Positions 1,972-19,853 of a stretch of 64,000 nt of DNA are shown here, one piece after another. Source of the stretch: Halalkaliarchaeum desulfuricum (lineage in GTDB: Archaea; Halobacteriota; Halobacteria; Halobacteriales; Haloferacaceae); contig NZ_CP025066.1 of the NCBI RefSeq assembly GCF_002952775.1, positions 682,001 to 746,000 of the forward strand. Direction: 5' to 3'. The number at the start of each line of letters is the position of its first letter. The stretch's first letter is position 1. The notes under the pieces are model-generated. The model searched no databases and was not told the origin of the DNA. It saw nothing but the letters and a program-made list of their open reading frames with translations. Position numbers and translations under genes: made by a program.

Positions 1972-4900
1972 CTACTGTCGAATCAGAGCCGCGAGCCTCC
2001 GTTCGACAATCTGCGACGGCCACGCTGATTCGATTGTGTCACGGTCAACCCCGAGGGTCTCCACGGCTCGACTTACGAGCGGTGGTGAGATTCCCTGTTG
2101 CTCAAGGAGGTACGAGTACGTAGTCACCTGGAGCTCGTACCGACGTCGTGACTCCGGCGTTTGATCCGTCAGTGTAATCTTCACGTCGGCCACGTGCCGC
2201 TTTCCCGAGGGTAACTCGACGACAAAGTCCGCCTGACCGTGTATCTCAAATTCGACATCAGCTATTTCTACGAGACCGTCTATCGGTCGTTCGACGGAGA
2301 CCTCGGTCTCCGGGTTCTGGATCAGACTCCAGAGATCGGATTCGAGGAAGTCCTCCAGAACGCTCTCGAAGAAGGTAAACATCCCCTCGCGTTCGTCTTC
2401 GCCGACCCTCGGTGTCGCAGCAGTGAGAACCTCGTCGAACGTTCTGCGGACTTCTGGTCCCACGGTTCGGAGGGACCGTTCGGGGACGTCGCGGACGACT
2501 AGCTCTGTGAGGACGGCGTGGAGGCAGCTACCGACTTCCTCCGGTCCGAGAAGATCGAACTGAAGCGGTAGATCGTCGGGAACGTCGTTCGTGTCCGTGT
2601 GGAGTGGCTCGCCAAGTAAATGCGCGATGGTGTGCTCGTCCAGCGTTTCGGTCAGCGGGTACATCGTACTGGGGTTCAGGAACCGTGGGATCCAGCGTTC
2701 GAGACTGTCCCGATGTGGCGGAGATTTGGAGATTTCGTTGTTCGGCGTCTCGGAGGTAGTCGGCCACCAATCCGCGAACAGGTCGGCGTCGTTGACTCCA
2801 ATCTCGATAACGTCCCTGTTCGGGTCCGAGTTGTCGATCTCAAGTATGTATGAGTCGGTGCCACGGTGGTCGTATTCGAGCCCATCGCGGATCGTGTCGA
2901 GCCAGCGATCCCGTAGTTGGTCTTCCTCCAGATCGGAGCGAGGTAACGGGACGACGAGATGATCCCGCGCACGGGTCAGCGCCACGTACAGTAATCGCCA
3001 GGCTTCAGCCCGTTCCTCCGACACGACGCGACGGAGCCGGTTAGGGCCGACGAGTTCGTCACAGCTCGCCGTATCGGAGACAGAATCGAGCCATCGAGCT
3101 GTTGCCCAACGGAGGCCAGTATCACGGTCCCAGCCGCCCGGGTTCTCGTACAGCCCCCCATCGAACGAGGGAATCGTGATGTCACACGGTATGTTTGTGT
3201 TGGTCGGTGGTGCGATCCCGGCGATCGGTCCCTGAGTGATGAACCGCTGAGTATGCGCCCCACGCGACCAGATGTCGAACCCGGGGTCAGCAATAACGAT
3301 GACGTCATCTTGATCGCCTTTTGCGCTATGGGCGGTTCGGAACTCGACGTCGTACGTGGCTCCCGTCGTGCTCGGTTGTGCCGGGCCGTCGTCAGGATCG
3401 TCACGGAACGGCTGTACGAGATCCGTTAGCTCGCTAGGTGGGTAGTGCGTTTCTCCCTCCCATTGCGTGAGGGTTTCGACGAGCGCATCGAGGTTGGCGA
3501 CTCGCTGTTCAGGATCAGTCCCGGCGACGATCTCGTACGGATCGGCTCTCAATGCGAGAGCTTCCGTGATCTCCTCCACGTACACGCTGGCTGGGTGGCG
3601 CTGGAAGAAATCACTCCGATCTCGGAGTCGGCGAAGCTCGCGCAGCGTTCGTCGTTGCGCCTCCGTAAACTCGGCTGCATCGTCGTCGAGGACACGGTCG
3701 ATATCCCACGAGTGGGCCTTGAACACGTTTGAGTCCTCGACAACGTCCAGCGGTGACTCGGTCAGGAGTGCTTCCGTTCGCTCGGGAGAACCGGGACGTG
3801 TCAGCCAGTCGCAGACGGCGAACACCGTTTCGACGGCAGGGCAGTCGAACAGCCCCTCACCCCTGGTGTGAACCCGGAGTCCTTCTGCAGCGAACGCGTT
3901 CTCGTAGTCGGACATTCGCGTGCCGCGTCGGAACAGTACCGTTACATTCAGCGGCTCACCGTCCTCGTCACAGAACGTTCCGTCGGCGAACCCTCGTGAG
4001 ATATGTGTCGCCAGCATGTTCGCCTCTCCGACTTCACAATCGGGGTTCGCCCATGTCTCCGATCCGGGATGGCCAACTCCAGTGAACGAAGAGACATGAA
4101 TTGCCGGGCTGTCGTCGCCTTCACGGGCTGCGTCCAACGGTGGGTACGAGGTGTCAAGGTGGCCAATACCCCCGCGAGCTGGATCGGTGAACATCGGCTC
4201 GGCGATTGCGTTGATGCCTGCGGCGATGTCGGGCACGCACCGGTACGTCGTCGTCGCGGTCCGGTTTTCGTGGGTGTCCCAGTCCACGCCGAGATACTCA
4301 CCGTCGGTTGTTGCGGCGTCGAACCACGCCGGGTCGGCGTGTCGCCACAGATAGATCCCCTGGAGTACGTCACCACAGGCGAATACGCGCGAATCCGCCG
4401 TTACGATGTGTGAGAGTGCTGCGTGCTGGATGGCGGAAACATCCTGAGCCTCGTCGATGACCAGGCTCCGGATCCGTGATCGATACTTCTGAAGGATACG
4501 ACGGCGATGTGAGCGGTCGATCGTGCGAATTGGTCCCGGGAGATGAGATCGGTCGTCCGACTCATCGAAATACGCGTCTACGAGGTACGCGACGTCGGTG
4601 TGTGACACGACGCCGTACTCTCGGACGGTTGCTCGATAGGTGGATCGGTACGCAGAAAGGAGCGTACAGATGTCGTCGATTCGATCACACCACTCCTCGT
4701 ACAGTTCACGGTCGGCCTCGACGAGGCGTTCCCGATCCGAGCCTTCCACTGCATCCCGGACTTTCTCCCCAATCTCGTTGTCGTTGCCGTGGAAACACTC
4801 GACGGATCGGACGATGTCGTCGAACGAGTCGGGCTTCCCGTCGGGATACGTCGAGTTACGTGTCCGCTCCAGCTCCGACCGGAACTCCGCGGTCGAGAGA

Positions 4901-5526
4901 CTCTGGTCCCGACAATACGTTACTGCGGCTTCCAGCATCTCGGCAACGCTGTCGTCGTACTCTCCGGCCGGGTACGCAGTCTCCAGTTCGAGAACCCGCT
5001 GTTCGTACTCCGAGTCATTCCGGAGAGCCTCGTAGCAGTCACGGTGAACCCGTTTCAACAGCGCGTCGTTTCCGACCGACGGCATTTCGTCGAACCCGAC
5101 GTCGTGAGCGACCTCCTGAAGGAGTCCACGTAGCAGGCTGTCGATAGTCCCAACGTAGGGTGCCTGCCGAACGCGCTGGAGGAGGTACTGTAGTTCCTCT
5201 TCGGAGACTTCGGACGCAGCCGGAACGAGTTCGTGTTCGACGATCGTCCGGAGACGGTCACAGACATCCGGAATAATGTCTGCTGCCTCGTCTCGGTTGA
5301 ACGAGATCACCGCAACGTGTTGCTCCGGTGTCGGATCACCAGCCACGTATCGGCGGAGGATGTCCTCGGCAGCGAGGTGATGGGCGACGACCGATTTCCC
5401 GGACCCGGGAACGCAGTTGAGCGTGAACAATCCGGTTTCGTGGTCGAAGTAGGCCTCTCTGATCGCTCGCTGTGCATCCTTCAACACGAGGGGATCGATG
5501 TCGTCCCCTTCGGTATCGTCAGTCAT
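1972..5526 (-). CDS. AddA-like UvrD/Rep helicase with C-terminal RecB-type nuclease
   Basis: 1184 residues. Superfamily 1 helicase motifs are clear: Walker A VPGSGKS at 39-45, the GTIDSLLRG segment near 126-134, Walker B LVIDEAQD at 355-362, TTYRC further on, and motif VI YVALTRARD in the C-terminal half. The last 90 residues carry a PD-(D/E)XK nuclease: GQAD (D1100), DVK (D1114, K1116) and Q-x3-Y (Q1133, Y1137), the RecB-type layout. This helicase-plus-nuclease design is that of AddA, which resects DNA ends with a second subunit. The start at 5526 overlaps the stop of the upstream AddB-like gene by 8 bp. It is the last gene of the leftward operon. Role in foreign-DNA destruction is inferred from context; repair is the alternative. 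Confidence 0.88.
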   Translation of the reverse strand: MTDDTEGDDIDPLVLKDAQRAIREAYFDHETGLFTLNCVPGSGKSVVAHHLAAEDILRRYVAGDPTPEQHVAVISFNRDEAADIIPDVCDRLRTIVEHELVPAASEVSEEELQYLLQRVRQAPYVGTIDSLLRGLLQEVAHDVGFDEMPSVGNDALLKRVHRDCYEALRNDSEYEQRVLELETAYPAGEYDDSVAEMLEAAVTYCRDQSLSTAEFRSELERTRNSTYPDGKPDSFDDIVRSVECFHGNDNEIGEKVRDAVEGSDRERLVEADRELYEEWCDRIDDICTLLSAYRSTYRATVREYGVVSHTDVAYLVDAYFDESDDRSHLPGPIRTIDRSHRRRILQKYRSRIRSLVIDEAQDVSAIQHAALSHIVTADSRVFACGDVLQGIYLWRHADPAWFDAATTDGEYLGVDWDTHENRTATTTYRCVPDIAAGINAIAEPMFTDPARGGIGHLDTSYPPLDAAREGDDSPAIHVSSFTGVGHPGSETWANPDCEVGEANMLATHISRGFADGTFCDEDGEPLNVTVLFRRGTRMSDYENAFAAEGLRVHTRGEGLFDCPAVETVFAVCDWLTRPGSPERTEALLTESPLDVVEDSNVFKAHSWDIDRVLDDDAAEFTEAQRRTLRELRRLRDRSDFFQRHPASVYVEEITEALALRADPYEIVAGTDPEQRVANLDALVETLTQWEGETHYPPSELTDLVQPFRDDPDDGPAQPSTTGATYDVEFRTAHSAKGDQDDVIVIADPGFDIWSRGAHTQRFITQGPIAGIAPPTNTNIPCDITIPSFDGGLYENPGGWDRDTGLRWATARWLDSVSDTASCDELVGPNRLRRVVSEERAEAWRLLYVALTRARDHLVVPLPRSDLEEDQLRDRWLDTIRDGLEYDHRGTDSYILEIDNSDPNRDVIEIGVNDADLFADWWPTTSETPNNEISKSPPHRDSLERWIPRFLNPSTMYPLTETLDEHTIAHLLGEPLHTDTNDVPDDLPLQFDLLGPEEVGSCLHAVLTELVVRDVPERSLRTVGPEVRRTFDEVLTAATPRVGEDEREGMFTFFESVLEDFLESDLWSLIQNPETEVSVERPIDGLVEIADVEFEIHGQADFVVELPSGKRHVADVKITLTDQTPESRRRYELQVTTYSYLLEQQGISPPLVSRAVETLGVDRDTIESAWPSQIVERRLAALIRQ

Positions 5527-6760
5527 CGTTTCCCTCCGTTTCCGCGGCGACGAACCCCCGTATTTCCGGTGGAAGTTCCCGTTCACACCCGAGCAGGCGC
5601 TGTCGGGCTTCTTCGGTGATCTGTCGTGTATCGAGGTGGTCGAGGAGCGGAGAACGAGGGACGTCGTCGTTGTCGGTCGTTTGCGTGTATCTCGTAACGA
5701 CGACGCAGCGGTTCGCCGACTGTAGCGTGTCGAGGAACTGGTCGCGGTCGCGGCCACCTGCCCACGCCGGCTGGGGTGCGAGCTTTCCCGACTGTCCGTC
5801 CCCCCGAAGGAGCGCTTCCTGAAACTCCGGCGGGAGTGCTGACTGTGACGGTTGTGGCCACTCGTCGGCCGTCAGTCCGAGCGCGATCACGTACGGAACA
5901 TCGAGTGCCCAGATGTCGTTCGCCTCCAGGATGTCCAACGCACGCGCGTTCGAGTGTTCTCGGCGACCAGGACGCTGCGTGGCGATCACACCAGCGAGTT
6001 CAGAGACGTCGCTCCAGGAACGTTCCATCGACCCTTCTTCGAGCCGATCGGCGAACTTGTGCTGTAACTGTCGGACGAGGGTTCGAACGCGAACGACTGC
6101 ACGGGCGTCGATCTCCGTTTCGAGTAGCGCCGGCGAGTCGGCAGCTTTCGTCTCCGGAAGGCCCCGCTCGGCGTACGCTTCGACGACGTCGTCGAGCAGG
6201 GACGTGACCGATTCCGGATCCGGAGACGGTGCGGACTCGACCCACTCCGCGAATTTCCGGAGCCGGTCGTCCACCTCTTCGGCTGATTCGAGCACGTCGG
6301 CCCACTCGGAGATCGATCGGGCTTCCTGTGAGAGTGCATCCGTTGATCGATGTAACTCCTCAGGTTCGATCGGCCACGCTTCGGACGTCACTTGCCTCGG
6401 CGACCACCGGAGTTCGAGTGGGCGCGTCAATGTCTCCAGATCCGGGGTATCGTTCGCCAGTACCTCACAGACTGCTGTGACGAGTGCATACGGACGAGTC
6501 CGCGTCACGCGGAGCTGTGTCCAGAATACTGGTGTGATCCCGTACTGGAGCGCCGCCCGAAACAGCGGCTCCTCGTACGGATCGAGGTCCCGGACGACGA
6601 CGGCGATATCGCGGATCGGAACGTCCCGTTCTCGGAGTGCAGCTACCGTCGCCATCGCGCTTCGCGCTTCGTCTCGGCGTGTTGTCGAGACAATCTCGAC
6701 CGCTGGAACGTCGGGCGTCTCGATGGATCGGGAGAGTGCGAACCGGTCCGAGGCTGTCAT
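5519..6760 (-). CDS. AddB/RecC-like protein, C-terminal half
   Basis: 413 residues. The segment IAVVVRDLDPYEEPLF near residues 50-65 and PYVIALGLTADEWP near residue 290 match the motif pattern of the inactive helicase domain 2 in AddB, RexB and RecC. A later Rxxfldtl...vvTRYTQT stretch is also typical. There is no Walker A, no PD-(D/E)XK motif and only one nearby cysteine, so the iron-sulphur nuclease tail of classical AddB is absent. It starts in an ATGA overlap with the upstream N-terminal half and overlaps the helicase gene downstream by 8 bp, so the three proteins probably form one complex. Confidence 0.7.
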   Translation of the reverse strand: MTASDRFALSRSIETPDVPAVEIVSTTRRDEARSAMATVAALRERDVPIRDIAVVVRDLDPYEEPLFRAALQYGITPVFWTQLRVTRTRPYALVTAVCEVLANDTPDLETLTRPLELRWSPRQVTSEAWPIEPEELHRSTDALSQEARSISEWADVLESAEEVDDRLRKFAEWVESAPSPDPESVTSLLDDVVEAYAERGLPETKAADSPALLETEIDARAVVRVRTLVRQLQHKFADRLEEGSMERSWSDVSELAGVIATQRPGRREHSNARALDILEANDIWALDVPYVIALGLTADEWPQPSQSALPPEFQEALLRGDGQSGKLAPQPAWAGGRDRDQFLDTLQSANRCVVVTRYTQTTDNDDVPRSPLLDHLDTRQITEEARQRLLGCERELPPEIRGFVAAETEGNDD

Positions 6761-7641
6761 TCGAACACCTCCAGGCCCGGATCGGCAACGGAAAGGAGAT
6801 CACGGACGCGACTCGTGAGATACTCCCCGGTTCCGGATCGGAAGTGAACGTGGATCTCGATGGCGGTCGTTTCAAGCAGCCCGTGTACGAGGTCCGTGTG
6901 TGGGGCTGAGAAACTACTGAGCCCGAGGAGCGTGAGCCGTTCGATCTGCGGGTACGTTTCTTTCCAAGCTGCTCCGTCGGTTGTCACGATCGACCGCGTC
7001 GCGCGCCGGATCAGTTCCGTTTCCGAGATCGCCTTCGACGTACGGTCTCGGAGACGTCTTTCCACGGCAAGCGCGGCTTCGAGGAACTCCTCGGCCTCTC
7101 TGTCGATCGGGCTGTATAGCGCGTCGGCCGTCTCCGACCAGGCCGAAATGCGCTCCGGGTGAAAGTTCGTGGCTGTCTCTACTTCTGTCCGGATCTGCTC
7201 CACGTGTTGTGGATCACGTGATGCCGCGTCAGACGGCAGTTGGATTTGCATCGGTTCTCCGGGATCCGAACTCTCTAGAACCGACCGGAGTAGAGTAAGA
7301 CGGTCAATACGATCGATGGTCGTGGTCGGGCGTCCGGCTTCTTCCAGCACCTGTTTACACAGTCCCACCGGATCCTCGAAAATGAAAGCGTCCTTCGGTT
7401 GCTTTGCTTCGCGTAGTCGTCGCTGGACGTTCCGTTGGTGGAGTTCGACCGGTGAAACAACGAGTTCCGTCGGGTTCGAACAGCGTCTGGCCCTGTTGAA
7501 GAGTCGCTCCTCGTCACCCACGTGTAGCGTCAGCTGCTCGGGAACTCTTCTCTTGTGTACCTCTCTACTATCCATTGATCTGCGACGACGAACCGTCGTT
7601 TCCGGACCTACAGCGTGCTCCCCTGAACCGTTGTCGGTCAT
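6757..7641 (-). CDS. AddB/RecC-like protein, N-terminal half
   Basis: 294 residues. After a basic leader, LTLHVGDEERLFNRA occupies the place of the Walker A region of AddB-like proteins but lacks a GxGKT signature, so nucleotide binding looks lost. The rest (TELVVSPVELHQRN, TTIDRIDRLTLLRSVL, IEIHVHFRSGTGEYLTSR) resembles helicase domain 1 of AddB/RexB. Its last codons overlap the next gene as ATGA, and that next gene continues the same architecture. The two together (about 707 residues) look like one AddB-like subunit split at the boundary between its two helicase domains. The start at 7641 is chosen from the ATGA overlap with the HNH gene; Met23 is an alternative. Confidence 0.62.
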   Translation of the reverse strand: MTDNGSGEHAVGPETTVRRRRSMDSREVHKRRVPEQLTLHVGDEERLFNRARRCSNPTELVVSPVELHQRNVQRRLREAKQPKDAFIFEDPVGLCKQVLEEAGRPTTTIDRIDRLTLLRSVLESSDPGEPMQIQLPSDAASRDPQHVEQIRTEVETATNFHPERISAWSETADALYSPIDREAEEFLEAALAVERRLRDRTSKAISETELIRRATRSIVTTDGAAWKETYPQIERLTLLGLSSFSAPHTDLVHGLLETTAIEIHVHFRSGTGEYLTSRVRDLLSVADPGLEVFE

Positions 7642-8420
7642 CGGGAGGACACCTCCTCGAACAGCTTTGCCAGCCCATCGACGACTTCGCCGAAGTCATC
7701 CCCGTCCATCAATGCCTCGGAATGCTCATCGTCGTCAAAGGGGACACGTATCGCGCCCGCTCGCTTGCTGATGTAGAACGTTGCGCGACGAGACCGACCG
7801 AAGAACAACGCGATAGTCGAGCGAGGAACACCAGCGTCGAGAAGACGACGAAGGAGTTCGTCCCGGAGCCGGTCCATCATCTCCTCTTCGGTCTCCGGGA
7901 TTCGACCGCGGACCGTTCGTCCGATATCGTCCGGATACCCCCATTCGTCGGTATCCAGATCTTTGTCGATTAGCGGCTGGTCCAACGAGTCCACTTCCTG
8001 ATCGACCGACATCAACGACCAGAGGCGCTCGATGATCGACGTCCGAGCGGAGCCACTCGTGACCGCCCGAATCTCACTCGTTGTCGCTGGACCGTTTTCG
8101 TAGAGGTAGGTCAGGATCTCGATGTCCTTGTACAGCAGGTTGACTTCGGCAGCGACGCCGTCGAGATCGAATGGGAGATCGTCGGCGGTCATTCGGTGGG
8201 TGACCAGATGATGACACGGGATACACATCGTCGTCCCGTTGTCAGGATGATCGCGGTCCACTAACTCCGGATCTTCCTGCATATGGTGTGCTTCCAAGTC
8301 GATGTTTCCGCCTCGTTCCGGCCCGCGCCGACCACAGACCTGGCATTGATACCCATCTCGCTGCAGGATTTCCTCCCTAACGCCCGCCGGGAACGTGCTG
8401 TATCCCTGGTTACGAGCCAT
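7638..8420 (-). CDS. HNH endonuclease with central winged-helix region
   Basis: 260 residues. An HNH/McrA-type domain fills residues 15-76: C26-x2-C29, the HH pair at 45-46, N61 and C66-x2-C69 followed by HH, that is a Zn-stabilised beta-beta-alpha metal nuclease with all key residues kept. Residues about 95-130 (EILTYLYENGPATTSEIRAVT...ERLW) read as a winged helix, giving a nuclease with its own DNA-recognition module. The start at 8420 is preferred over an in-frame upstream ATG at 8474 because it leaves a short 11-bp overlap with the Zn-ribbon gene. It sits in the middle of the leftward operon and probably cuts DNA there. Confidence 0.85.
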   Translation of the reverse strand: MARNQGYSTFPAGVREEILQRDGYQCQVCGRRGPERGGNIDLEAHHMQEDPELVDRDHPDNGTTMCIPCHHLVTHRMTADDLPFDLDGVAAEVNLLYKDIEILTYLYENGPATTSEIRAVTSGSARTSIIERLWSLMSVDQEVDSLDQPLIDKDLDTDEWGYPDDIGRTVRGRIPETEEEMMDRLRDELLRRLLDAGVPRSTIALFFGRSRRATFYISKRAGAIRVPFDDDEHSEALMDGDDFGEVVDGLAKLFEEVSSR

Positions 8421-8913
8421 CCGCCACCTCCATATCGATGTCGCTCCGATACTGGGTCCCGCTTGCTTCTTCAACAGCGATATCGCTCAACACCATCGTT
8501 CGACTCTCGTCCGGAGCGTCCCACCGAGTGATCCACGCGGATGCGATGACGTCCATACTGTCCGGATCAGGATCAAGAGCAACGTCACAGTCTTCGCAGA
8601 CCCAAGCATCCATGAACCACGTGAGTAGGCCTAACGGTCTCCGAGCGCGGACGGTGACAGATTTGTACGGGACGAGGTTTCGACCACAGTTGCAACAGCT
8701 CGTATCTTTCGGAAGCGACCAACCGGTGAGTGCCTGTTCCGCGGCGACCTCAACCTTCTGACGCGAGTAGGACTCGACCACGCTGACGAATGGCTCGCTT
8801 TCGCCCTCGTCCACAGCGAGACACTCCAACAACTGGAGGGTTCGATCGACCTGGTACGTCAGTTTCCGAACGACCATTTCGTCGTCCAGATCCTCCTCGG
8901 TCACACGCGTCAT
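8410..8913 (-). CDS. Zn-ribbon protein of unknown function
   Basis: 167 residues. Two CxxC knuckles (C73/C76 and C106/C109) enclose a stretch rich in basic residues (VTVRARRPLGLL), giving a zinc ribbon that probably contacts nucleic acid or a partner protein. The N-terminal 60 residues are helical and acidic. The start at 8913 makes an ATGA overlap with the upstream wHTH gene. No enzymatic motif is visible. Tight coupling to the HNH and AddAB-like genes suggests it is an adaptor in the same complex, which is inference. Confidence 0.7.
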   Translation of the reverse strand: MTRVTEEDLDDEMVVRKLTYQVDRTLQLLECLAVDEGESEPFVSVVESYSRQKVEVAAEQALTGWSLPKDTSCCNCGRNLVPYKSVTVRARRPLGLLTWFMDAWVCEDCDVALDPDPDSMDVIASAWITRWDAPDESRTMVLSDIAVEEASGTQYRSDIDMEVADGS

Positions 8914-9281
8914 TCGGATCCCTCCGGATCGTAACACGCACTCGTTATCTCTCGGATGTGGTTGGCGACTGGCTTCGTTGCCTCGGTAGCTTCAACCCGC
9001 TTTCCTCTTTCGTCGTAGTCTACGACCCCGAGGTCGTCCATCATCTCTAGGTGAGACTGGATCAACGCGACGTAGACGGTCGTTCGCTGTTCGCCCGTCA
9101 CTTCGCTGGGAGCGACGAGATTCTCAATCGCAGCGATTTCACGGGCCAGTTCGGAGGCAGTTTGTGGCTCTTCAGACTGCGAAAGCGACAAGAGAACTTG
9201 CCGCCGCCGACTGTTCGACATCACGTGGAACGCGTCGTCGGGATCGATCGGGATGCCGTGAGCCTGATCGAGGACAGTCAT
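8910..9281 (-). CDS. Winged-helix protein of haloarchaeal type
   Basis: 123 residues. The opening DPDDAFHVMSNSRRRQVLLSLSQ followed by TASELAREIAAIE is the halophile winged-helix family seen in many small regulators, in which HVMSNSRRR begins helix 1 and ASELA is the start of the second helix. VYVALIQSHLEMMDDLGVVDYD forms the recognition helix and wing. It overlaps both neighbours as ATGA, so it is translated with the defence operon. It could regulate the operon or serve as a DNA-binding subunit. Confidence 0.8.
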   Translation of the reverse strand: MTVLDQAHGIPIDPDDAFHVMSNSRRRQVLLSLSQSEEPQTASELAREIAAIENLVAPSEVTGEQRTTVYVALIQSHLEMMDDLGVVDYDERGKRVEATEATKPVANHIREITSACYDPEGSE

Positions 9282-9580
9282 CGAAGCCCTCCGGCGAGAT
9301 GCTCCCCACGGCAGGTGAGCACGATTAGTTCGTGGTCCGGTTCCCCGATCAGATCGACGTAGCCGCCATCCGCGAGTTTCTGAAGTCGATCGTTCACCTC
9401 AGTGGCGGAGAGATCAGTCCTCGCAACGAGATCCCTCCGGGTAGTCGTACCGCCAATAGCACGTGCTTCTTCGACGATTCGCCTGGATCGTGCATCGTGT
9501 TCGGAGACGATCTCCGCGCTCTCGGCGTCCCGAGAGACAGAGTTATGACTCTCGACACGATTAGTGTCATTTGCTGTCAT
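9278..9580 (-). CDS. Small winged-helix protein, first gene of the leftward operon
   Basis: 100 residues. The second half (RRDLVARTDLSATEVNDRLQKLADGGYVDLIGEPDHELIVLT) is a compact wHTH with a beta wing. The first half is acidic and probably disordered. Being first in the operon and next to the divergent promoter, it is the best candidate for the repressor that controls both directions. A TATA-like TTTTTATAAT on the minus strand near 9648-9657 lies about 70 bp upstream, leaving a short 5' leader. The function is inferred from fold and position. Confidence 0.75.
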   Translation of the reverse strand: MTANDTNRVESHNSVSRDAESAEIVSEHDARSRRIVEEARAIGGTTTRRDLVARTDLSATEVNDRLQKLADGGYVDLIGEPDHELIVLTCRGEHLAGGLR

Positions 9581-9639
9581 CCTTGGCAGCGATGTTCCCG
9601 GTGTTCCCGCACCGGGGGCGTTTTCAGCCGTTTCTAGGT

Positions 9640-9743
9640 AGTAGATTCATTATAAAAACTATTTGTATATTAATCGAACACCGCTGCTTGAACTCACCAG
9701 AGTGAGATGGATTTTATAAGTACTGGGCTGTACCTTTCTGGAA
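9640..9743. promoter_or_regulatory. Divergent promoter between the AddAB-like and McrBC-like operons
   Basis: The 163-bp gap between the divergent starts at 9580 and 9744 is AT-rich. TTTATAA at about 9713-9719 on the plus strand lies 25 bp ahead of the McrB-like ATG, the spacing for a leaderless archaeal transcript. On the minus strand a TTTTTATAAT box near 9648-9657 faces the wHTH gene. The two core promoters are within 70 bp of each other, so shared control is likely. Confidence 0.55.
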
Positions 9744-10976
9744 ATGGGAAACTCGTCGGACGATACGTACACGCTGGAAGACGCCGAGGACGAGATCAAC
9801 ATCCTTCGACGTGTTGAGGACGATGTCGTGGAAGCGATCGAGAACGCCGCAACTGAAGAAGTCCTCCAGTACCTCATTGCAGAGCAAGAACTGGATATCG
9901 CCCACGACGGAAAACGCGGCCTCGGAAAGGTTCGGAAGGCAGTCCTGGAGTCCCGTCTCGCTTCAGATCGACTGAAGCGCCTCGTAAGTCTCCGTGGCGA
10001 CGAGACGCCCGAGGATATCTTGGTTCCTGAAGACGTCGTTCGGAACGCCAAGGTCGCGCTCGAAGCAGGGAAACCCGTCGTGCTCTACGGCCCGACAGGC
10101 ACCGGGAAGACGACGTTTGCGAAGCAGTTGGCCCGAGAAACGGGAATCGGCTATTCACTCCACACCGCGACGCCCTCCTGGACCCCGTCGGACATCATCG
10201 GTGGAATCAGCCCGGACTACACCGGAGAGTCCCTCAGCTATCGAACCAAACTCGGATGCGTCTCGGAAGGCGTTCGACGTGCCCGTCGATTCGACGTCGA
10301 ATATGGCGTCATTCTCGACGAAATCACTCGGGCGGACATCTCGAAAATCTTCGGTCCGCTCTACACCGCGATTGAGAACCCCCACCAGACGATCTTCGAG
10401 ACCGATGAAGGCGAGACCATCGAGCTTGACGAGCGTGTGAACATCATCTGTACGATGAACATGTCGGACCGAACGGTGAACGAACTCGACAACGCGATCA
10501 CCCGTCGGTTCGCCATGATCGAACTGGACGAGTATGAGGAGGACAAGCGTCGGCAACTGTTCAAGGACTGGATCAATACGCACATTTCGGAAGCGACGGA
10601 TCTGGCGGACGCCGAAATACTGCGGCTCTTCGAGCGGGACTACGAGGGAATCAACCACGGTCACGAAGCTACTGCGCAGGGCACGATCATGCGGTTCGGT
10701 CCGATGCACTACCGGGACGTAGCAGTCTTCCTCGGCGTCGGCTGCCGCGAAGGGGGCGAATACGAATACGATCAGACCGACGCGGTCGGTCAGGCGTTCC
10801 GTACCTACATCGTTCCGCGTCTCCTGAACTCGGCCGCGTTCCCGCAGGTCGAACGGATCGCCGAGCACTACCGCACGCTGAACGACGAATTCGAGGAATT
10901 CGACCTCACGCCGGCGGCGAAGTTGGCCGAACGCGAACTCGAACAGGAACGGAGACAGATGGGTTCCTACGAGTAA
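9744..10976 (+). CDS. mcrB: McrB-like AAA+ NTPase
   Basis: 410 residues. Walker A GPTGTGKT is at 116-123, Walker B VILDE with DE at 192-193, the McrB-type sensor CTMNMSDRT near 236-244 (N239) and a double arginine ITRRF at about 252-256. The family forms GTP- or ATP-driven hexamers that translocate DNA and activate the McrC nuclease. The 100 residues before the AAA+ core are helical and acidic, and no EVE, YTH or DUF3578 domain is recognisable, so the modification it reads, if any, is unknown. It is followed by the McrC-like gene through a TAATG overlap. Confidence 0.88.
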   Translation: MGNSSDDTYTLEDAEDEINILRRVEDDVVEAIENAATEEVLQYLIAEQELDIAHDGKRGLGKVRKAVLESRLASDRLKRLVSLRGDETPEDILVPEDVVRNAKVALEAGKPVVLYGPTGTGKTTFAKQLARETGIGYSLHTATPSWTPSDIIGGISPDYTGESLSYRTKLGCVSEGVRRARRFDVEYGVILDEITRADISKIFGPLYTAIENPHQTIFETDEGETIELDERVNIICTMNMSDRTVNELDNAITRRFAMIELDEYEEDKRRQLFKDWINTHISEATDLADAEILRLFERDYEGINHGHEATAQGTIMRFGPMHYRDVAVFLGVGCREGGEYEYDQTDAVGQAFRTYIVPRLLNSAAFPQVERIAEHYRTLNDEFEEFDLTPAAKLAERELEQERRQMGSYE

Positions 10977-12736
10977 TGAGCGCCGTTGACGAAGTCTACG
11001 AGTACGGGCAAGACACCTTCAACGTCCCAGAGCGAGGCGAAATCCGCATAGAGGGGTGTCCGTCGTCCATCACCGACCAGCTTCGTCGCGCGTCGTTCAC
11101 ACGCGAGAGTCCAGGCGTGTTCACGAAGAGCCAGGAGGCGCTCGACTCCGATCAGGAGTACGAGGTCATCACAGTCACCGTCGAGGGGGACGACGGCAAC
11201 GTGCTCCACGTCTCCGCCACTGACATCATCGGCGTGGTGAGCCTGACGCCCTCGTCGAAGGTCCAAGTCGATCCCAAGATCGAGTGGGAGCATATCTTCG
11301 ACATGCTCCTGGCCGTGTACGACCAGAATCGCTCGTTGGAGTACCACGGTATTCCGTTACAGGACTTCCTCTCCGACGACATCCACCTCGACGACGTGTT
11401 CGTCGTGCTGGCGATCAACTATCTCGACGGCCTCGAAACCATCCAGCGCAACGGGTACATCCGCGACCTGATCCTCCGACGAGTTGACAGCCTGGACGGC
11501 CGCGGGGAGATCGACGTCGAACAGACGCTGCTCAACCACGCCCGCGGGACGATCGAACCCCACTGGATCCGGAACGAAATAGAGTACGACAACGCGGCGA
11601 ACTCGCTGCTCCATTACGCCGGGAAGACGCTCCTGCGACTCTTCCGGGAGAACGCTGCCGACCGCGATCACCCCGGGTACGTCCGGCTATTCTCCGAAGT
11701 CCACCGAGAGGTCGAACGCCTCGAACGGATGGGCGTTGATAGCGGGCTGGACCGCATCGACGAGTACCGCCGTATCTCGCTGGAAGACCTGCCGAAGCAG
11801 CGACGTTACTACCGGACGGCGTTCGACGTGTCGAAAGCGGTGCTGTCGTCCTCGCTCGGTCAGCAGCTCCGGGACGGCCCCCGCGAACTGGTCGTCGATT
11901 ACGTGCTGAACATGGAGTCGCTGTTCGAGCAGTATTCCCAGGTCGTGATCGAGCGAGAGCTCGCTTACGTGAAGTCGTACGACCACCTCGGAGATCTCGA
12001 AGCCGTGACCCCCGTCAGATCGCCGTCAGTGAATCCGTTCGAGGGCGAGAGCCAGATCCGGCACGAACCCGATCACGCGCTTCAGGAGGGCGACGAGACG
12101 ATCGCAGTACTCGACTCGAAGTACTACGCTGAGGGACACGATCCGGTGAAGGAGTCACCGTCCCGCTCGCGGCTGTTCAGCTACGCGTACCTCTTGGACT
12201 CTGACCGGCTTGCGTTCCTGTGTCCCCTCCTCGAACCGAGACGGCGTCGGGTCACGCAGACCGGTGCGGAGCTACGAATCGTCTCCCCGGAGGGCGAGTT
12301 CGCGCTGGACGTCTACGATGAGGTCATTCACGAGTACCTCCACGACGTTCTCGTCGAGGACCACCCGGAGCTCGAAGCGTTCCGCGCCGTCGCCGAGAAC
12401 GACCTGTGTCTCGACGGCGTGGACGAGGGGGACCTGAGTCGGGCCAAGGAAATGAGTGGTCCGTTCACATTCAAGGACGTCCGTGACTTCTCGCTCCGCG
12501 TGGTCAAGGCGGCCGCCGACGAGCACTCCTACAACGTCCGGAACCGATACGACCTCGAACAGGACGGCGACTGGACGCGCGATCAGATTGAGGCCCGTTG
12601 CGAGCGGCGATACGAGCACACGACGACGTGTATCCCGGTGTTTCACCGCGAAGGCGGGAATGAGTGGATCGACCTGTACTTCCTGCAGAACGGCACCGGC
12701 GAGGTTGAGAAGGAAGGTCCGCTGAAGCTTCTGTAG
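10976..12736 (+). CDS. mcrC: McrC-like nuclease subunit
   Basis: 586 residues, longer than E. coli McrC (about 350). The McrC core has the early strand SSKVQVDPKI and FDMLLAVYD. The PD-(D/E)XK site reads EPDHALQEGDETIAVLDSKYY in the second half (PD, then DSKY), followed by RLFSYAYL. The extra 150 residues after the nuclease (from about 440) form a separate acidic domain with no match I know. The start ATG overlaps the McrB stop codon. Together they make a type IV-like restriction complex cutting modified or otherwise foreign DNA, by family knowledge. Confidence 0.85.
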   Translation: MSAVDEVYEYGQDTFNVPERGEIRIEGCPSSITDQLRRASFTRESPGVFTKSQEALDSDQEYEVITVTVEGDDGNVLHVSATDIIGVVSLTPSSKVQVDPKIEWEHIFDMLLAVYDQNRSLEYHGIPLQDFLSDDIHLDDVFVVLAINYLDGLETIQRNGYIRDLILRRVDSLDGRGEIDVEQTLLNHARGTIEPHWIRNEIEYDNAANSLLHYAGKTLLRLFRENAADRDHPGYVRLFSEVHREVERLERMGVDSGLDRIDEYRRISLEDLPKQRRYYRTAFDVSKAVLSSSLGQQLRDGPRELVVDYVLNMESLFEQYSQVVIERELAYVKSYDHLGDLEAVTPVRSPSVNPFEGESQIRHEPDHALQEGDETIAVLDSKYYAEGHDPVKESPSRSRLFSYAYLLDSDRLAFLCPLLEPRRRRVTQTGAELRIVSPEGEFALDVYDEVIHEYLHDVLVEDHPELEAFRAVAENDLCLDGVDEGDLSRAKEMSGPFTFKDVRDFSLRVVKAAADEHSYNVRNRYDLEQDGDWTRDQIEARCERRYEHTTTCIPVFHREGGNEWIDLYFLQNGTGEVEKEGPLKLL

Positions 12737-12740
12737 CCAA

Positions 12741-13124
12741 TTAGAATGGAGCAGTCAACCACTCGCCCTCCTCTCTTCGTTCGATCTGTGGGCCGAAGAC
12801 GTCCTGCAGGGAGTACAGTTCGTCGTCGTACCGGAGGTCGTACGTCTTTCCCCGACGGTGGAAGGACCCATCGACGACGAATTGGACGGTCGGACTCTGG
12901 TATTCCAGGTCGTTCGCGCGACGATCCATCTCCGACGCCAACTCTTCGGCCAGATCTCCGTCCACGAAGGCCTCTTCGAGACCGACGACCGCCACTTCAT
13001 CGGGTACCTCGTCGTTTCGGAGTCGCTCGACGAACTCCGCTACCGGGATCTGATGATCGAAGGTGTCGTACGCGTCTTTCACGACGACGTTGTATTGACC
13101 GGGGATTCGTCCGGGAGCTGCCAT
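12741..13124 (-). CDS. Hypothetical 127-residue protein at the end of the methylase/Fic operon
   Basis: Begins MAAPGRIPGQYNVVVKDAYD and is acidic throughout. It shows alternating strands and helices (VAVVGLEEAFVDGDLAEELASEMDRR, TVQFVVDGSFHRRGKTYDLRYDDELYSLQDVFG). There are no catalytic motifs I recognise. It is 3'-most in a leftward series (methylase, Doc-like Fic, two small ORFs, this gene), and its end is only 4 bp from the end of the convergent McrC gene. It could be a component of the methylase system or an immunity protein. The start at 13124 is the only good Met. Confidence 0.65.
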   Translation of the reverse strand: MAAPGRIPGQYNVVVKDAYDTFDHQIPVAEFVERLRNDEVPDEVAVVGLEEAFVDGDLAEELASEMDRRANDLEYQSPTVQFVVDGSFHRRGKTYDLRYDDELYSLQDVFGPQIERREEGEWLTAPF

Positions 13125-13168
13125 TACGTACAGAACGTCACCGAAGGGACAAAAAGGGGTGCGGTACC

Positions 13169-13273
13169 TCAGTCCTTGCGGAACAAGTCTCGCGGAGGTG
13201 TCAACTCGTCGAAGTTAGAGGGATCGGTGCGCTCGTCGGCGTCGGCGCGGAGTTCCGAGCGTGGCTGTTTCAC
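13169..13273 (-). CDS. Small 34-residue ORF (GTG start)
   Basis: Starts at GTG and reads KQPRSELRADADERTDPSNF followed by DELTPPRDLFRKD and a TGA. The acidic, haloarchaeal-like composition and the position directly after the 45-residue ORF (the GTG lies 7 bp beyond that gene's stop) argue for a real gene. The SNFDELTPPRDLFRKD tail looks like a peptide that docks on a partner. It may be a second piece of an antitoxin or a linker protein. Length alone cannot prove it is translated. Confidence 0.4.
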   Translation of the reverse strand: MKQPRSELRADADERTDPSNFDELTPPRDLFRKD

Positions 13274-13279
13274 GTCGGT

Positions 13280-13417: not shown

Positions 13418-13419
13418 TC

Positions 13420-13971
13420 TCATTCGTCCCTACGTGAACCGTCGTCATAACCGTTCTGCTCACTTTCCGCCTCGTCGATACCCTCGATATCGAGGTCAGT
13501 CGGACGACTTCCCTCTGCACCGATCCGGGAAAGCCAGAGTTCGACGGTGGCCCGGTACTCGGGCGAGAGCGGCTCGGTGTGATCCCGTAAGTACGCGGTC
13601 GCGGTCTCAGCTTCGACAGCAGCTTCGTCGGTGGCCAACTCCTTTAGGATCTCCTTGATTCGCCGGTCGTAGTCGAACTCCAGTCCGTTCAACGCGTAGA
13701 AGATCCGAACTGACATCAGCGCTGTCCGTTTGTTCCCATCAACGAACGGGTGATTCGAGGCGATGAGCCGGAGGAGTTGATACGCCGTCTCGTGGATCGT
13801 CTCGGGTGCCTGTCCGAAATGCCCCTCACGAACCGCTTCCACGGCATACTCGACGTCGCCCCGGGAGGAGACGCCCGGTTCGGTGTCCTCGTTCGACTCG
13901 ACGATCAGCTCATGGATCGTCAGGATGTCGGCAGCGGACAGGTACCGCGTCGGTTCCGGATCCTCTCCCAT
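13420..13971 (-). CDS. Fic/Doc-family protein
   Basis: 183 residues with the intact motif HPFVDGNKR at 74-82 (HxFx(D/E)GNxR, with the Lys typical of Doc). Doc proteins phosphorylate elongation factor Tu/1A, while other Fic enzymes add AMP; the K variant favours Doc-like chemistry. No (S/T)xxxE(G/N) self-inhibitory helix is visible, so an external antitoxin would be needed. The gene begins 9 bp after the end of the DUF1156 methylase and is followed 2 bp later by a 45-residue ORF. A toxin tied to a methylase operon suggests an abortive or addiction arm, which is inference. Confidence 0.85.
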   Translation of the reverse strand: MGEDPEPTRYLSAADILTIHELIVESNEDTEPGVSSRGDVEYAVEAVREGHFGQAPETIHETAYQLLRLIASNHPFVDGNKRTALMSVRIFYALNGLEFDYDRRIKEILKELATDEAAVEAETATAYLRDHTEPLSPEYRATVELWLSRIGAEGSRPTDLDIEGIDEAESEQNGYDDGSRRDE

Positions 13972-13980
13972 CGTTCGACC

Positions 13981-16662
13981 TCAGTAACTCGTGATATCCC
14001 GATCGCCAAGCACCCGCGTGTAGGTGTCGTCGCTGGTCACGTCCGCGAGCCGGCCCGCTAACTCGCGGAGGTCGTCATCGACGCCCCACTTGTCCACGTA
14101 GTTCTGGACGGACTGGCCCTTCTCGTAGCGGTACCGGAGGAACTGGAGCTTGTCGAGGTTCGAGAGGTGTTCGCCGCCGTCGCCGTTGACCCGCTCCTGG
14201 ATGTACGCCTGCCGCTTCTCGTTGTCCCAGGTGCCGAGCTCGAAGCCGTCGTCCTGGTTGTACAGGCGCATCTCCTTGAGGTCCTCCGGCGTGGCGTTCG
14301 TCCCGCGGCAGAGCTTGTTGACGTCGTCGTAGGAGACGTTCGGGGTGTCGAGCAGGTCGATGAATACGTCCTCGACGCCGATATCGCTGGCCTCCTGAAT
14401 GATGCCGTAGATCTCCTGGACGACCTCCTTGGCGGACATGATCTCGCCGTCGCGCTGGACCTTGCCGTGGTGCTTGGAGTACTCACGGAAACACGCGCCC
14501 ATCTCCATCACGCCGATGTCGCCCCGAGAGAGATCGCGGTTCTCTTCGAGCTGCTTGCGAGTCTGGCGGGCCGTGCGGTAGATGTTGCGGCGAAGCGACT
14601 TCCACGAGGTAGGTTCGGTATCGTCGATCGGACGGGCGACGACGACGATGTCGAAGGAGACTGCTTCACCAGTAATGAATTTGTTTATGTCCGCAGTAAT
14701 TGGGTATGTTGCTGTAACTTCGAACCCAACGTCACATAGTGATTCAAGCAATTCTCCCCATGATTCTGAGTCACTATGGTGGTAAGTAAACGTTAGAACA
14801 CCATCGTCTTTGAGTGCCTGGTCAATGGTACTGAATGCTTCACGAAGCTCTGATTCAAATTCTTCCGGCCCCTTTCCCTCTGCCGGATTAGAAACTATGC
14901 TTTCCGCCCTCGGGGCTGCCTCTGATTCGAAACAGTCGTAATCAGATTTCAAGATGGTCCTCAGCCATACATAAAAGAAATCAGATAGTTCAGAATATAA
15001 GACATTGTGATAATACGGTGGATCTGTGATTACCGCATCATATTCATTTTCGGCATCAATCTGTCGCATATCTCCTTGGCGAACTGTTGCATTTGCCCCG
15101 ATAGGTTGGTTGAAAGGCTCTGATTCTATAGATTCGCCATCCGAGACATACCGCTCAGTAGGAGATCGAGCATATTCTACTCCAGATTTCACCATATCCC
15201 AAATGGACTCAAACGTACCTCTACCATATTCTGTACCCCACACATTACCTTCAGTAGGTTGTTGAGGGGGATCAAACGAGTTAGATTTGAATATGTTTAT
15301 AATCTTATTGTAGGAGTAATCGTAACCGACCATCATCGAATTTGTTCTCAAAGTGCCGCTGAATGCCAGCAAGAGATATTCCTGTAGATTCTGATCTTCG
15401 ACCTCAGAGATAGATCGAAGTAACTTGGATAAAGAAAGTAATTGTCTTTCATTATACATATCTGTCCAATATTCGATATCATGTATTTCCAAATTCCCTT
15501 CTCCACGAGCCGTTGCTTCGAACTTTGGTGAGGCGGTTTTATATCCGTCTCGTATTTCTATATTCGGTGTGAATTTATGGAGGTAATCGTTCGATTCCCA
15601 TTTGTTTTTCGCCTTTTCAAATAACTCTTTGTCCGTTGTTGTACTTTGTTTATAGCCCTTGAATTCACTCCTGTCTCGCCCATTACTATCACACTCTGAA
15701 CAATAGTACTCAACGGCATAAAGACGGGTTGAATAACCATTCTGTTCTTGGATCGCATCCGTTATTCTGTATTTTTGTCCACAGGCGGGGCAGTTGTAAT
15801 TCCCCTGTGATGCATTCCCTTCCTTGGGTACAAATCCGTGGCCACAGTCATTGCAAACGCTATCAGATTGCCAGTCATCTACCAGGGTGACTGCACCACA
15901 ATCAGGACAGAGGACGTTATACTTATCGTCGTTCTCGTAGCGCCCCTTTGCCACTCGATAGTCCTTAAAAAGCGGAACCGTGCTGCCACAGGAGACACAG
16001 TCCAACTCCTTCACCCAGAAGTTGTACATCACGTCCGCGTCGTGGTCGCCGTTCGGACAGGGCGTCTTGTAGTACTGCGTAATCTCGTCGGCGACGTCCT
16101 CCTTCACCTGCTCGAAAGCCTCCTCAAGCTCTTCGACGTCAGTCTGGCCCGCTTCGAGTTCCTTCTTCGTGACGAACCACGCGACGGGGTTCAAGTCGTT
16201 GCCGACGACCTCCGCGCCGAACCGAGACGCCTCGACGAGTGACGTCCCGCCACCCATGAACGGGTCGAGGATTTTCTTGTCCTCGACGCGGACGTCTTTC
16301 GGGTAGAGTTCCCAGAGGCTCTCCGGGTCCGTCATGTCCACGCGTTCGAGCAGCGACGCGACGTCGAGGTCGGACTCGCCATCGTCGTCGCCGTACGCCG
16401 CGAGCGTGCCACCCTCGTGACCCGGCTCGTAGACGGAGACCTTCTCGGGATCGTCGAGGAGTGTGTACAGACAGATCGCGCGGAAGACACAGCCCAGGCG
16501 GCGCGCCCACCACTTGTGCATCGTGTAGATCGGACGGTAGTACATCTTCGCCCGCCCCTCTTTCTCGGCGATCTCGTTCACGCGCTCGATCGGGAACCCC
16601 CGTTCGATGGGGAGTTCCGTACGCTCGTGGCGCTCCTGCGAGGATCCGGATTGCTCAGACAT
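13981..16662 (-). CDS. DUF1156 adenine-specific DNA methylase with Zn ribbons
   Basis: 893 residues. The DUF1156 signature ERGFPIERVNEIAEKEGR is followed by YRPIYTMHKWWARR (about 20-55). The AdoMet-binding loop is DPFMGGGTSLVEA (133-145) and the catalytic motif is DPPY at 547-550. Five CxxC knuckles (C222/225, C252/255, C270/273, C291/294, C321/324) make the Zn ribbons of this family (COG1743). It should methylate adenine in host DNA. Codons for residues about 225-668 are AT-rich (plus-strand positions roughly 14660-15990) while both ends are GC-rich, so the centre was probably exchanged. It heads an operon with the Fic gene; its usual partner, the DUF499 ATPase, is 3.2 kb upstream on the same strand. 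Confidence 0.9.
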   Translation of the reverse strand: MSEQSGSSQERHERTELPIERGFPIERVNEIAEKEGRAKMYYRPIYTMHKWWARRLGCVFRAICLYTLLDDPEKVSVYEPGHEGGTLAAYGDDDGESDLDVASLLERVDMTDPESLWELYPKDVRVEDKKILDPFMGGGTSLVEASRFGAEVVGNDLNPVAWFVTKKELEAGQTDVEELEEAFEQVKEDVADEITQYYKTPCPNGDHDADVMYNFWVKELDCVSCGSTVPLFKDYRVAKGRYENDDKYNVLCPDCGAVTLVDDWQSDSVCNDCGHGFVPKEGNASQGNYNCPACGQKYRITDAIQEQNGYSTRLYAVEYYCSECDSNGRDRSEFKGYKQSTTTDKELFEKAKNKWESNDYLHKFTPNIEIRDGYKTASPKFEATARGEGNLEIHDIEYWTDMYNERQLLSLSKLLRSISEVEDQNLQEYLLLAFSGTLRTNSMMVGYDYSYNKIINIFKSNSFDPPQQPTEGNVWGTEYGRGTFESIWDMVKSGVEYARSPTERYVSDGESIESEPFNQPIGANATVRQGDMRQIDAENEYDAVITDPPYYHNVLYSELSDFFYVWLRTILKSDYDCFESEAAPRAESIVSNPAEGKGPEEFESELREAFSTIDQALKDDGVLTFTYHHSDSESWGELLESLCDVGFEVTATYPITADINKFITGEAVSFDIVVVARPIDDTEPTSWKSLRRNIYRTARQTRKQLEENRDLSRGDIGVMEMGACFREYSKHHGKVQRDGEIMSAKEVVQEIYGIIQEASDIGVEDVFIDLLDTPNVSYDDVNKLCRGTNATPEDLKEMRLYNQDDGFELGTWDNEKRQAYIQERVNGDGGEHLSNLDKLQFLRYRYEKGQSVQNYVDKWGVDDDLRELAGRLADVTSDDTYTRVLGDRDITSY

Positions 16663-18838: not shown

Positions 18839-19783
18839 CTATGGACTACTTCGATGATTTCTATCAACCTCGTACTCGGAAGCAAGCGCCTCGAACTCTT
18901 CCCACTGCGGCGTTTGTTCTGCTGTGATCTCGCCATCGGTACGCAAAAACTCTACGAGCGACATCACGATATCCTCGATTCCGTAATTCCTTGCAGTCTC
19001 TTCGAGATCCTCTTCTGTCAGTCCCGTCTCAGCAACGAGCAAGAGTGCGTACTTCCGGTGTCGTGAGTCGTTCTCTATCAGAAGGAGATGACAGACGAGG
19101 TCCGCCGGAGTAAGTGATTCGCGGTCTTCCGAATAGAAGTAGTACTGCTCGGACGTCGTGAAGAACTGGAGTCCGTACTCGGCAAACGCATCGAGACCTG
19201 TCCGATGATAATTCGGATCTTCTACGTCACCGTCAGTTCGAACGAGAAACTCGTCGTGGGATTCCCAGACGATCGTTCCGCCTTCGACATCACGCTTGAT
19301 TGTGACGCGGTGAACGTGATGTCGGAGCTCGTACGCGAAGACGTGGAGCTCGTCGAACTCCGCTCTGAGTCTATACTGACTGTGTTCCTTCGTCACCATT
19401 GCTCGATTCGTTAGCGTCCGAAGGTTTCGATAGATCGTCGAGCGATTGTGTCCGGTTCGTTCTGCAAGCTCAGTCGCCGTCCACGGGTCGTCACTGCCAA
19501 GGTAGTACAACATGTTCAGCATCGAAGGCGTGAGTAGATCGGCGAAATCGACGTGGGGATTCGCCTTCGTAAGGGACTGAAACACCTCCACACACCGTGC
19601 ATCGCTTGGCTTGGCGACGGAACGAGTTCCAACACGTTCCCTGGTGATCAGATTCCGTCGTTCTAGGCCTCCAAACGCGTCAGAGATAGTCGCTTCTTGG
19701 TACTCTAACTCCTCGGATAGCTCCTGTCTATCTTTTGGAGATTCTAGAGCAGAAAGGACCCTAAACTCTTTCTCATCAATCAT
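18839..19783 (-). CDS. Winged-helix transcriptional regulator with two HTH domains
   Basis: 314 residues. The first wHTH (residues about 5-55: LSALESPKDRQELSEEL...GGLERRNLITRER) and the second (about 85-140: MLYYLGSDDPWTATELAERTGHNRSTIYRNLRTLTNRAMV) precede a C-terminal ligand- or partner-binding half. Its start codon abuts one arm of a 16-bp inverted repeat that brackets its TATA box, strong evidence for autoregulation. It lies between the DUF499 ATPase gene and the convergent nuclease gene and may control the whole methylase system. Confidence 0.8.
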   Translation of the reverse strand: MIDEKEFRVLSALESPKDRQELSEELEYQEATISDAFGGLERRNLITRERVGTRSVAKPSDARCVEVFQSLTKANPHVDFADLLTPSMLNMLYYLGSDDPWTATELAERTGHNRSTIYRNLRTLTNRAMVTKEHSQYRLRAEFDELHVFAYELRHHVHRVTIKRDVEGGTIVWESHDEFLVRTDGDVEDPNYHRTGLDAFAEYGLQFFTTSEQYYFYSEDRESLTPADLVCHLLLIENDSRHRKYALLLVAETGLTEEDLEETARNYGIEDIVMSLVEFLRTDGEITAEQTPQWEEFEALASEYEVDRNHRSSP

Positions 19784-19784
19784 G

Positions 19785-19836: not shown

Positions 19837-19853
19837 ATCATAATATATTTTAT

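What the first reader, a model, noticed from the sequence alone, without database searches (positions are those of the whole stretch)
1972..12736. Divergent AddAB-like, HNH and McrBC-like operons as one candidate defence system
Seven leftward genes overlap end to end (two wHTH, Zn ribbon, HNH nuclease, two AddB-like halves, AddA-like helicase-nuclease) and share a 163-bp promoter region with an McrB/McrC pair. An end-resecting helicase-nuclease combined with an HNH enzyme and a modification-dependent restriction complex is not a system I know. A working model is that McrBC or HNH makes the break and the AddAB-like complex degrades the DNA.
Basis: partly seen in the sequence, partly recalled or inferred. 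Interest (0 to 1): 0.75.

Follow-up and report, generated by a model that had tools for sequence, protein, structure and literature searches.

The report
Two neighbouring defence modules, not one
The locus is two separate gene modules standing back to back in a salt-loving archaeon: a stripped-down AddAB-like DNA-end-processing machine, and a virus-defence system in which an McrBC nuclease is bound to a DNA methylase, an ATPase and a helicase and carries exchangeable extra defence genes.

Summary
The genes are as described, but they are not one system. (1) The leftward operon is a compact AddAB-like complex: AddA has intact helicase and nuclease motifs, and the two "AddB halves" are AddB without its C-terminal nuclease domain (fold match to AddB 4ceh/3u4q). 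AddA+AddB is the constant part; wHTH1/wHTH2, zinc ribbon and HNH are optional (HNH in 5 of 48 loci). It is patchy (36/148 genomes), horizontally spread, and usually without McrBC. (2) McrB-McrC belongs with the genes on its other side: McrB-McrC-x127-DUF1156 methylase-DUF499 ATPase, in that order in 34 of 36 loci (McrC/DUF499 co-occurrence p=2.5e-19; McrC/AddA p=0.24), usually followed by a SNF2 helicase gene plus a 386-aa gene. This looks like a haloarchaeal variant of the Hma / DUF499-centred BREX-related systems with McrBC where others have PglZ, a fused nuclease or HKD; between its backbone genes sit interchangeable cargo genes (here Fic, an Mrr-like nuclease, a wHTH). The "shared" 163 bp are two back-to-back promoters, each conserved with its own operon. 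AddAB near McrBC recurs in only two AddA clades, as expected of defence islands or a weak hotspot. The mechanism is inferred.

The parts
1972..5526 (-). Module A: AddA-like SF1 helicase with C-terminal RecB-family nuclease (1184 aa)
   Evidence: Pfam UvrD-helicase and PDDEXK_1; Walker A GxGKS, DEAQD, nuclease H, GxxD, K and QxxxY invariant in 21 homologues
5519..6760 (-). Module A: AddB-like C-terminal half (413 aa)
   Evidence: aligns to residues 343-726 of full haloarchaeal AddB, hhalign E 2e-21; fused in other lineages
6757..7575 (-). Module A: AddB-like N-terminal half (272 aa from ATG 7575; 294 aa from 7641)
   Evidence: hhalign to N-terminus of fused AddB E 1.6e-49 and to full AddB E 1.3e-6
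7638..8420 (-). Module A, optional: HNH nuclease (260 aa)
   Evidence: weak Pfam HNH match below the curated cut-off; >60% identical copies only inside AddAB operons
8410..8913 (-). Module A, optional: protein with CxxC...CxxC zinc-ribbon-like cysteines (167 aa)
   Evidence: sequence; present in 4 AddAB loci
8910..9281 (-). Module A, optional: DUF7344 winged-helix protein wHTH2 (123 aa)
   Evidence: present in 12 AddAB loci
9278..9580 (-). Module A, optional: winged-helix protein wHTH1 (100 aa)
   Evidence: present in 7 AddAB loci
9581..9675 (-). wHTH1 promoter and leader: TATA-like stretch about 9649-9673 and CCCGGTG/CACCGGG inverted repeat about 9597-9616
   Evidence: conserved upstream of wHTH1 in six other genomes whatever lies beyond; stem identical in 7 sequences, no covariation
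9704..9743 (+). McrB promoter: TATA box (TTTTATAA, about 9712-9719) some 25-30 nt before the start codon
   Evidence: recurs upstream of McrB in related loci with unrelated left-hand neighbours
9744..10976 (+). Module B: McrB AAA+ GTPase-like protein
   Evidence: matches solved E. coli McrB (6hz4) E 4e-13; Walker A and MNxxDR motif in 47/49 homologues
10976..12736 (+). Module B: McrC nuclease
   Evidence: Pfam PF10117 E 7e-10; PD...DxK in 49/49 homologues
12741..13124 (-). Module B: x127, conserved 127-aa backbone protein, no known family
   Evidence: conserved in order between McrC and the methylase; also in PglZ-type loci; confident model, no PDB match
13420..13971 (-). Module B cargo slot 2: Fic/Doc-like protein (HPFVDGNKR)
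   Evidence: sequence; weak PADLOC matches; absent from this slot in other loci
13981..16662 (-). Module B: DUF1156 DNA methylase (HmaB-like)
   Evidence: Pfam DUF1156, PADLOC HmaB E 1e-35; DPPY and DPFxGxGT in 50/50
17077..18756 (+). Module B cargo slot 3: Mrr-like nuclease candidate (559 aa)
   Evidence: weak Mrr_cat match
18839..19783 (-). Module B cargo slot 3: winged-helix protein (HVO_2833_C)
   Evidence: same slot in other loci
19854..23060 (-). Module B: DUF499 AAA+ ATPase (HmaC-like)
   Evidence: Pfam DUF499, PADLOC HmaC E 4e-17; Walker A in 36/38

Best explanation
Two independent modules stand back to back in a haloarchaeal defence island. Module A (1972-9580) encodes a minimal AddAB-like complex: AddA unwinds and cuts DNA from ends, and a two-piece AddB without a nuclease domain serves as the pseudo-helicase scaffold; in this sub-lineage two wHTH proteins (probably autoregulators), a zinc-ribbon-like protein and an HNH nuclease are in the same operon. 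Most likely it processes or destroys linear DNA, native breaks or invading DNA. Module B (9744-23060 plus a helicase pair elsewhere in the genome) is an RM-like system related to Hma and the DUF499-centred BREX-related systems: the DUF1156 methylase marks self DNA, the DUF499 ATPase and SNF2 helicase survey DNA, and McrBC supplies GTP-driven cleavage where other types use PglZ, HKD or a fused REase. Genes in the gaps between backbone genes are swapped from strain to strain and act as backup defences. Shown by comparison: gene content, motifs, conserved linkage, separate promoters, slots. Inferred: every biochemical activity, the role of McrBC as nuclease arm, antiviral function.
For: McrC/DUF499 co-occurrence 23 both, 6 and 2 alone, 117 neither (p=2.5e-19); McrC/AddA 9 vs 7.05 expected (p=0.24). 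Backbone order McrB-McrC-x127-HmaB-HmaC in 34 of 36 loci with McrC >=60% identical and both x127 and methylase found; three further such McrC loci lacked x127 or the methylase. SNF2 helicase + 386-aa gene follow the ATPase in many loci not cut off there. NCBI annotation of two plasmids gives the same order. Own-genome helicase copy 85% identical, 21 kb left of McrB. No REase-fused helicase or PglZ seen in the McrBC-type loci scanned; PglZ sits in the related L231/L232 loci. Separate conserved promoters. Slot gaps: 4-30 bp empty vs up to 3.4 kb filled (slot 1), 2 bp vs up to 6 kb (slot 2). Cargo includes GmrSD, GHKL-HNH, SMC-like ATPase. AddB: AlphaFold pLDDT 92.8, top PDB matches AddB 4ceh_B/3u4q_B. 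AddA motifs. AddAB patchy and mixing archaeal families.
Against: AddAB lies within about 10 kb upstream of McrB, pointing away, in four loci of two AddA clades (window, L140, L143, L150), more than random placement would give, so some island-level link is possible. The own-genome helicase gene is displaced from its usual place after HmaC. No activity data exist; McrBC may be an autonomous type IV enzyme. Some McrBC genomes (G017, G061, G070, G095, G108) lack the close DUF499 partner. Close relatives in the samples are not phylogenetically independent, so Fisher p-values are too small, though the order contrast does not rest on them.
Confidence: 0.78

Rival explanations
1. One reading: AddAB-like, HNH and McrBC are one system; McrBC or HNH breaks DNA and AddAB degrades it.
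For: 163-bp divergent arrangement; in three further loci AddAB lies 4-8 kb upstream of McrB, pointing away.
Against: Chance co-occurrence, separate promoters, McrBC tied to other genes, different histories (McrBC 87% vs AddA 58% identity in G096), McrBC near AddAB in two AddA clades only.
Confidence: 0.05
2. McrBC in module B is an autonomous type IV enzyme that attacks modified viral DNA, complementing the methylase-based system, as GmrSD/BrxU does beside BREX, rather than its nuclease arm.
For: McrBC cuts modified DNA in bacteria (established knowledge); GmrSD type IV enzymes are frequent auxiliaries of BREX (PMC12839542) and occur as cargo here; a few McrBC loci lack the partners.
Against: Unlike cargo, McrBC is fixed in position in the backbone; no other conserved nuclease was seen in the backbone; no known modified-base reader domain was found in McrB.
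Confidence: 0.3
3. The AddAB-like genes are the cell's general recombination machinery.
For: Fixed chromosomal place in seven Halorubrum loci forming one clade, and conserved surroundings in Halolamina.
Against: Absent from 112 of 148 family genomes at the threshold used; the own genome has NurA elsewhere; horizontal spread, plasmid and island locations.
Confidence: 0.15
4. The AddAB operon is itself cargo of the McrBC-type island, in a slot upstream of McrB.
For: Same side and orientation in four loci; in the own genome it lies between McrB and the displaced helicase pair.
Against: Most AddAB loci have no McrBC within 10 kb and most McrBC loci have no AddAB nearby.
Confidence: 0.15

Closest known systems
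DUF499-centred BREX-related (BR) systems / Hma (HmaABC)
   Same: DUF1156 methylase, DUF499 AAA+ ATPase, SNF2 helicase as core; auxiliary nucleases in or near the locus (PMC12839542, PMC8565338)
   Different: McrBC as constant partner and x127; no PglZ or REase/HKD-fused helicase found in the loci scanned; helicase in two genes (585+386 aa). PMC12839542 does not mention McrB or McrC in its held main text
Canonical McrBC (type IV restriction); LlaJI-type McrBC-methylase systems
   Same: McrB Walker A and NxxD signature, McrC PD-DxK
   Different: fixed to DUF1156/DUF499 genes; a general McrBC-methyltransferase association was noted in a census and deferred to a later paper (PMC11090510); LlaJI is from memory only
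AddAB / RecBCD / AdnAB
   Same: AddA helicase-nuclease architecture; AddB pseudo-helicase fold
   Different: AddB lacks the C-terminal nuclease domain and is split into two genes; accessory, with optional HNH/wHTH/zinc-ribbon-like genes
BREX with embedded type IV enzyme (BrxU/GmrSD)
   Same: methylase-based backbone with auxiliary restriction genes inside the locus (PMC12839542)
   Different: different backbone; several slots with many cargo types

Membership tests
AddAB | AddA: SF1 helicase with RecB-family nuclease, motifs intact | tested here: met
AddAB | AddB pseudo-helicase fold | tested here: met
AddAB | AddB C-terminal Fe-S nuclease domain (cysteine motif seen in full-length homologues) | tested here: not met
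   homology of the halves ends at residue 726 of 1124 of full AddB; cysteines present only in the full-length copies
AddAB | ATP-dependent exonuclease with Chi regulation | not testable with these tools
   needs biochemistry
Hma / DUF499-centred BR systems | DUF1156 N6-type methylase with DPPY motif | tested here: met
Hma / DUF499-centred BR systems | DUF499 AAA+ ATPase | tested here: met
Hma / DUF499-centred BR systems | SNF2 helicase in the locus | tested here: inconclusive
   next to the ATPase in many relatives; in the own genome 21 kb away
BR Type-1/2 | helicase fused to REase or HKD; DUF3780 (Type-2) | tested here: not met
   the 585-aa helicase matches only SNF2 and helicase domains; DUF3780 not among Pfam hits of the backbone proteins scanned
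BR Type-3 | PglZ in the core locus | tested here: not met
   no PglZ-like gene labelled in the window or the class-wide McrBC loci; present in L231/L232
BR Type-3 | iSTAND protein | tested here: inconclusive
   x127 occurs in PglZ-type loci too, but has no Walker A (0/46) and no significant PDB match
McrBC | McrB Walker A and NxxD signature; McrC PD-DxK | tested here: met
McrBC | modification-dependent cleavage | not testable with these tools
   no known reader domain found in McrB
DISARM | DrmA/DrmB (DUF1998) and DrmC | tested here: not met
   no such match among window proteins apart from shared SNF2/methylase homology

The most novel reading that the evidence does not exclude
A further type of DUF499-centred BREX-related system, common in haloarchaea, uses McrBC as its built-in restriction nuclease together with an uncharacterised 127-aa core protein, and serves as a chassis with defined slots into which other defence genes are exchanged.
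Probability: 0.55. Interest if true: 0.65.

Novelty: new variant of a known kind. Interest (0 to 1): 0.52.

Why it matters
It would show that the nuclease arm of BREX-like systems is interchangeable to the point of taking in McrBC, and would give McrBC a role inside a self/non-self methylation system. The fixed slots between backbone genes offer a way to find new defence genes: whatever sits in them is a candidate. The AddAB side adds a minimal archaeal AddAB with a scaffold-only AddB.

Tried and rejected
Single-system model: rejected by co-occurrence, order and promoter comparison. Larger operon of AddAB with PDC-M33 (GHKL-DUF6339) genes: M33 lies upstream of wHTH1 in two genomes only, so treated as an island neighbour. 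The 480-aa gene after AddA in several loci reads as a tyrosine-recombinase-like protein, again a neighbour. "McrB" hits near AddA in Halolamina (29-31%) are taken to be other AAA ATPases. Viral contigs: no AddB relative found. x127 as iSTAND: fold search inconclusive. Leader hairpin of wHTH1: no covariation, so RNA vs DNA operator undecided. PDB sequence profile searches with AddB alignments found nothing; only the fold search did. The HNH relatives at 33-42% elsewhere were not followed up. (promoter alignment with wrong coordinates for L136) is void.
Full report
Observation. The window (G000:C1:682001-746000 of a 3.31-Mb single-contig genome) holds the nine genes described. Its family sample contains contigs matching Halorubrum and Haloferax records, so it is haloarchaeal and probably Haloferacaceae by GTDB; the genus was not identified. 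AddA starts at 5526; five of six leftward junctions overlap by 4-11 nt, and HNH-AddBn probably leaves a gap.

Module A. AddA matches UvrD helicase and PDDEXK_1, and its helicase and nuclease motifs are invariant in 21 homologues. The two AddB-like proteins have no Pfam family but align end to end with a fused 605-691-aa protein in other lineages and with residues about 27-726 of 1115-1162-aa AddB proteins in three haloarchaea. A fused homologue was predicted with pLDDT 92.8; its best PDB matches are AddB chains of AddAB. The C-terminal part, with the cysteine motif of the full-length copies, is absent.

Distribution of module A. AddA (E<=1e-25) is in 36 of 148 family genomes and 15 of 28 genera. 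A named-genome scan gave 47 loci in several haloarchaeal families, some on plasmids; none in viral contigs. The constant part is AddA-AddBc-AddBn; wHTH2 is in 12, wHTH1 in 7, HNH in 5 and the zinc-ribbon-like gene in 4 loci, window included. In Halorubrum a copy without these extras sits at a fixed place and forms one clade. The tree mixes families, for example Halohasta with Halobacterium salinarum. The own genome also has NurA.

McrBC is not module A's partner. McrC (E<=1e-20) is in 29 of 148 genomes. Co-occurrence with AddA is 9 against 7.05 expected (p=0.24). In G096 the two lie about 10 kb apart, with McrBC 87% but AddA 58% identical to the window's. Upstream of McrB a TATA-containing block near the start codon recurs whatever lies to the left, and upstream of wHTH1 a block of about 95 bp recurs in six other genomes: two back-to-back promoters.

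Module B. Following McrBC to its right gives McrB-McrC-x127-DUF1156 methylase-DUF499 ATPase. DUF499 homologues of at least 43% identity co-occur with McrC in 23 genomes (6 McrC alone, 2 DUF499 alone; p=2.5e-19). A class-wide sample (McrC in 53 of 294 genomes) added 20 loci. Of McrC loci at least 60% identical in which both x127 and the methylase were found, 34 of 36 keep the order; in the other two (L204, L258) the ATPase was not within the fetched stretch; three further loci lacked x127 or the methylase. More divergent lineages keep the gene set with the ATPase and methylase exchanged in order, or with two methylases. A 585-aa SNF2 helicase (DrmD/BrxH/HmaA-like) and a 386-aa gene follow the ATPase in many loci; in the own genome they are at C1:667443-670347, 21 kb left of McrB, consistent with an inversion. 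Public annotation of two plasmids shows the same order. McrB, McrC, methylase and ATPase motifs are conserved.

Cargo slots. McrC-x127 is 4-30 bp when empty and up to 3.4 kb when filled; x127-methylase is 2 bp when empty and up to 6 kb when filled. Contents differ between loci with mostly 65-90% identical backbones: GmrSD, a GHKL-HNH protein, an SMC-like ATPase, and several unknown families. In the window they are a Fic/Doc-like protein, an Mrr-like candidate and a wHTH protein. That these are defence genes is inferred from their families.

Comparison with the literature. PMC12839542 defines three DUF499-centred BREX-related types: helicase-REase fusion (1), HKD-helicase with DUF3780 (2), PglZ with iSTAND (3); its held text does not mention McrB or McrC. 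Hma was named in PMC8565338. PMC11090510 notes that McrBC branches associate with methyltransferases and a DISARM-like system and defers them. Module B therefore looks like a BR/Hma relative with McrBC in the nuclease position. Only open-licence papers could be searched, so earlier description elsewhere cannot be excluded.

Mechanism. Inferred: methylase marks self, ATPase and helicase survey, McrBC cuts; alternatively McrBC is an autonomous type IV enzyme. Module A probably resects or degrades linear DNA. The recurrence of AddAB upstream of McrB in two AddA clades fits defence-island clustering or a weak hotspot.

Noticed in passing
window 9597-9616: Inverted repeat CCCGGTG/CACCGGG in the leader of wHTH1, conserved in seven genomes; RNA hairpin or operator undecided.
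   Followed up: partly
L204:11109-15788: 1559-aa GHKL/sacsin-like ATPase fused to a C-terminal HNH domain, as cargo in the methylase-ATPase gap.
   Followed up: no
L205:11874-14234: 786-aa protein without known family, recurring as cargo between McrC and x127 in several genomes.
   Followed up: no
L066, L067, L068: Full-length AddAB pairs (AddB 1115-1162 aa) in three haloarchaeal genomes.
   Followed up: partly
L231, L232: DUF499-PglZ-DUF1156-x127 loci, resembling Type-3 BR systems; x127 homologue is 28-38% identical.
   Followed up: partly
L103-L119: Relatives of the HNH protein at 33-42% identity, mostly in longer frames, away from AddAB; context not examined.
   Followed up: no
L218, L220, L221: Divergent McrBC-type loci with two DUF1156 methylases flanking the DUF499 ATPase.
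   Followed up: no
window 30371-44915: The defence genes lie beside a leftward ribosomal-protein gene cluster, judged from the protein sequences only.
   Followed up: no
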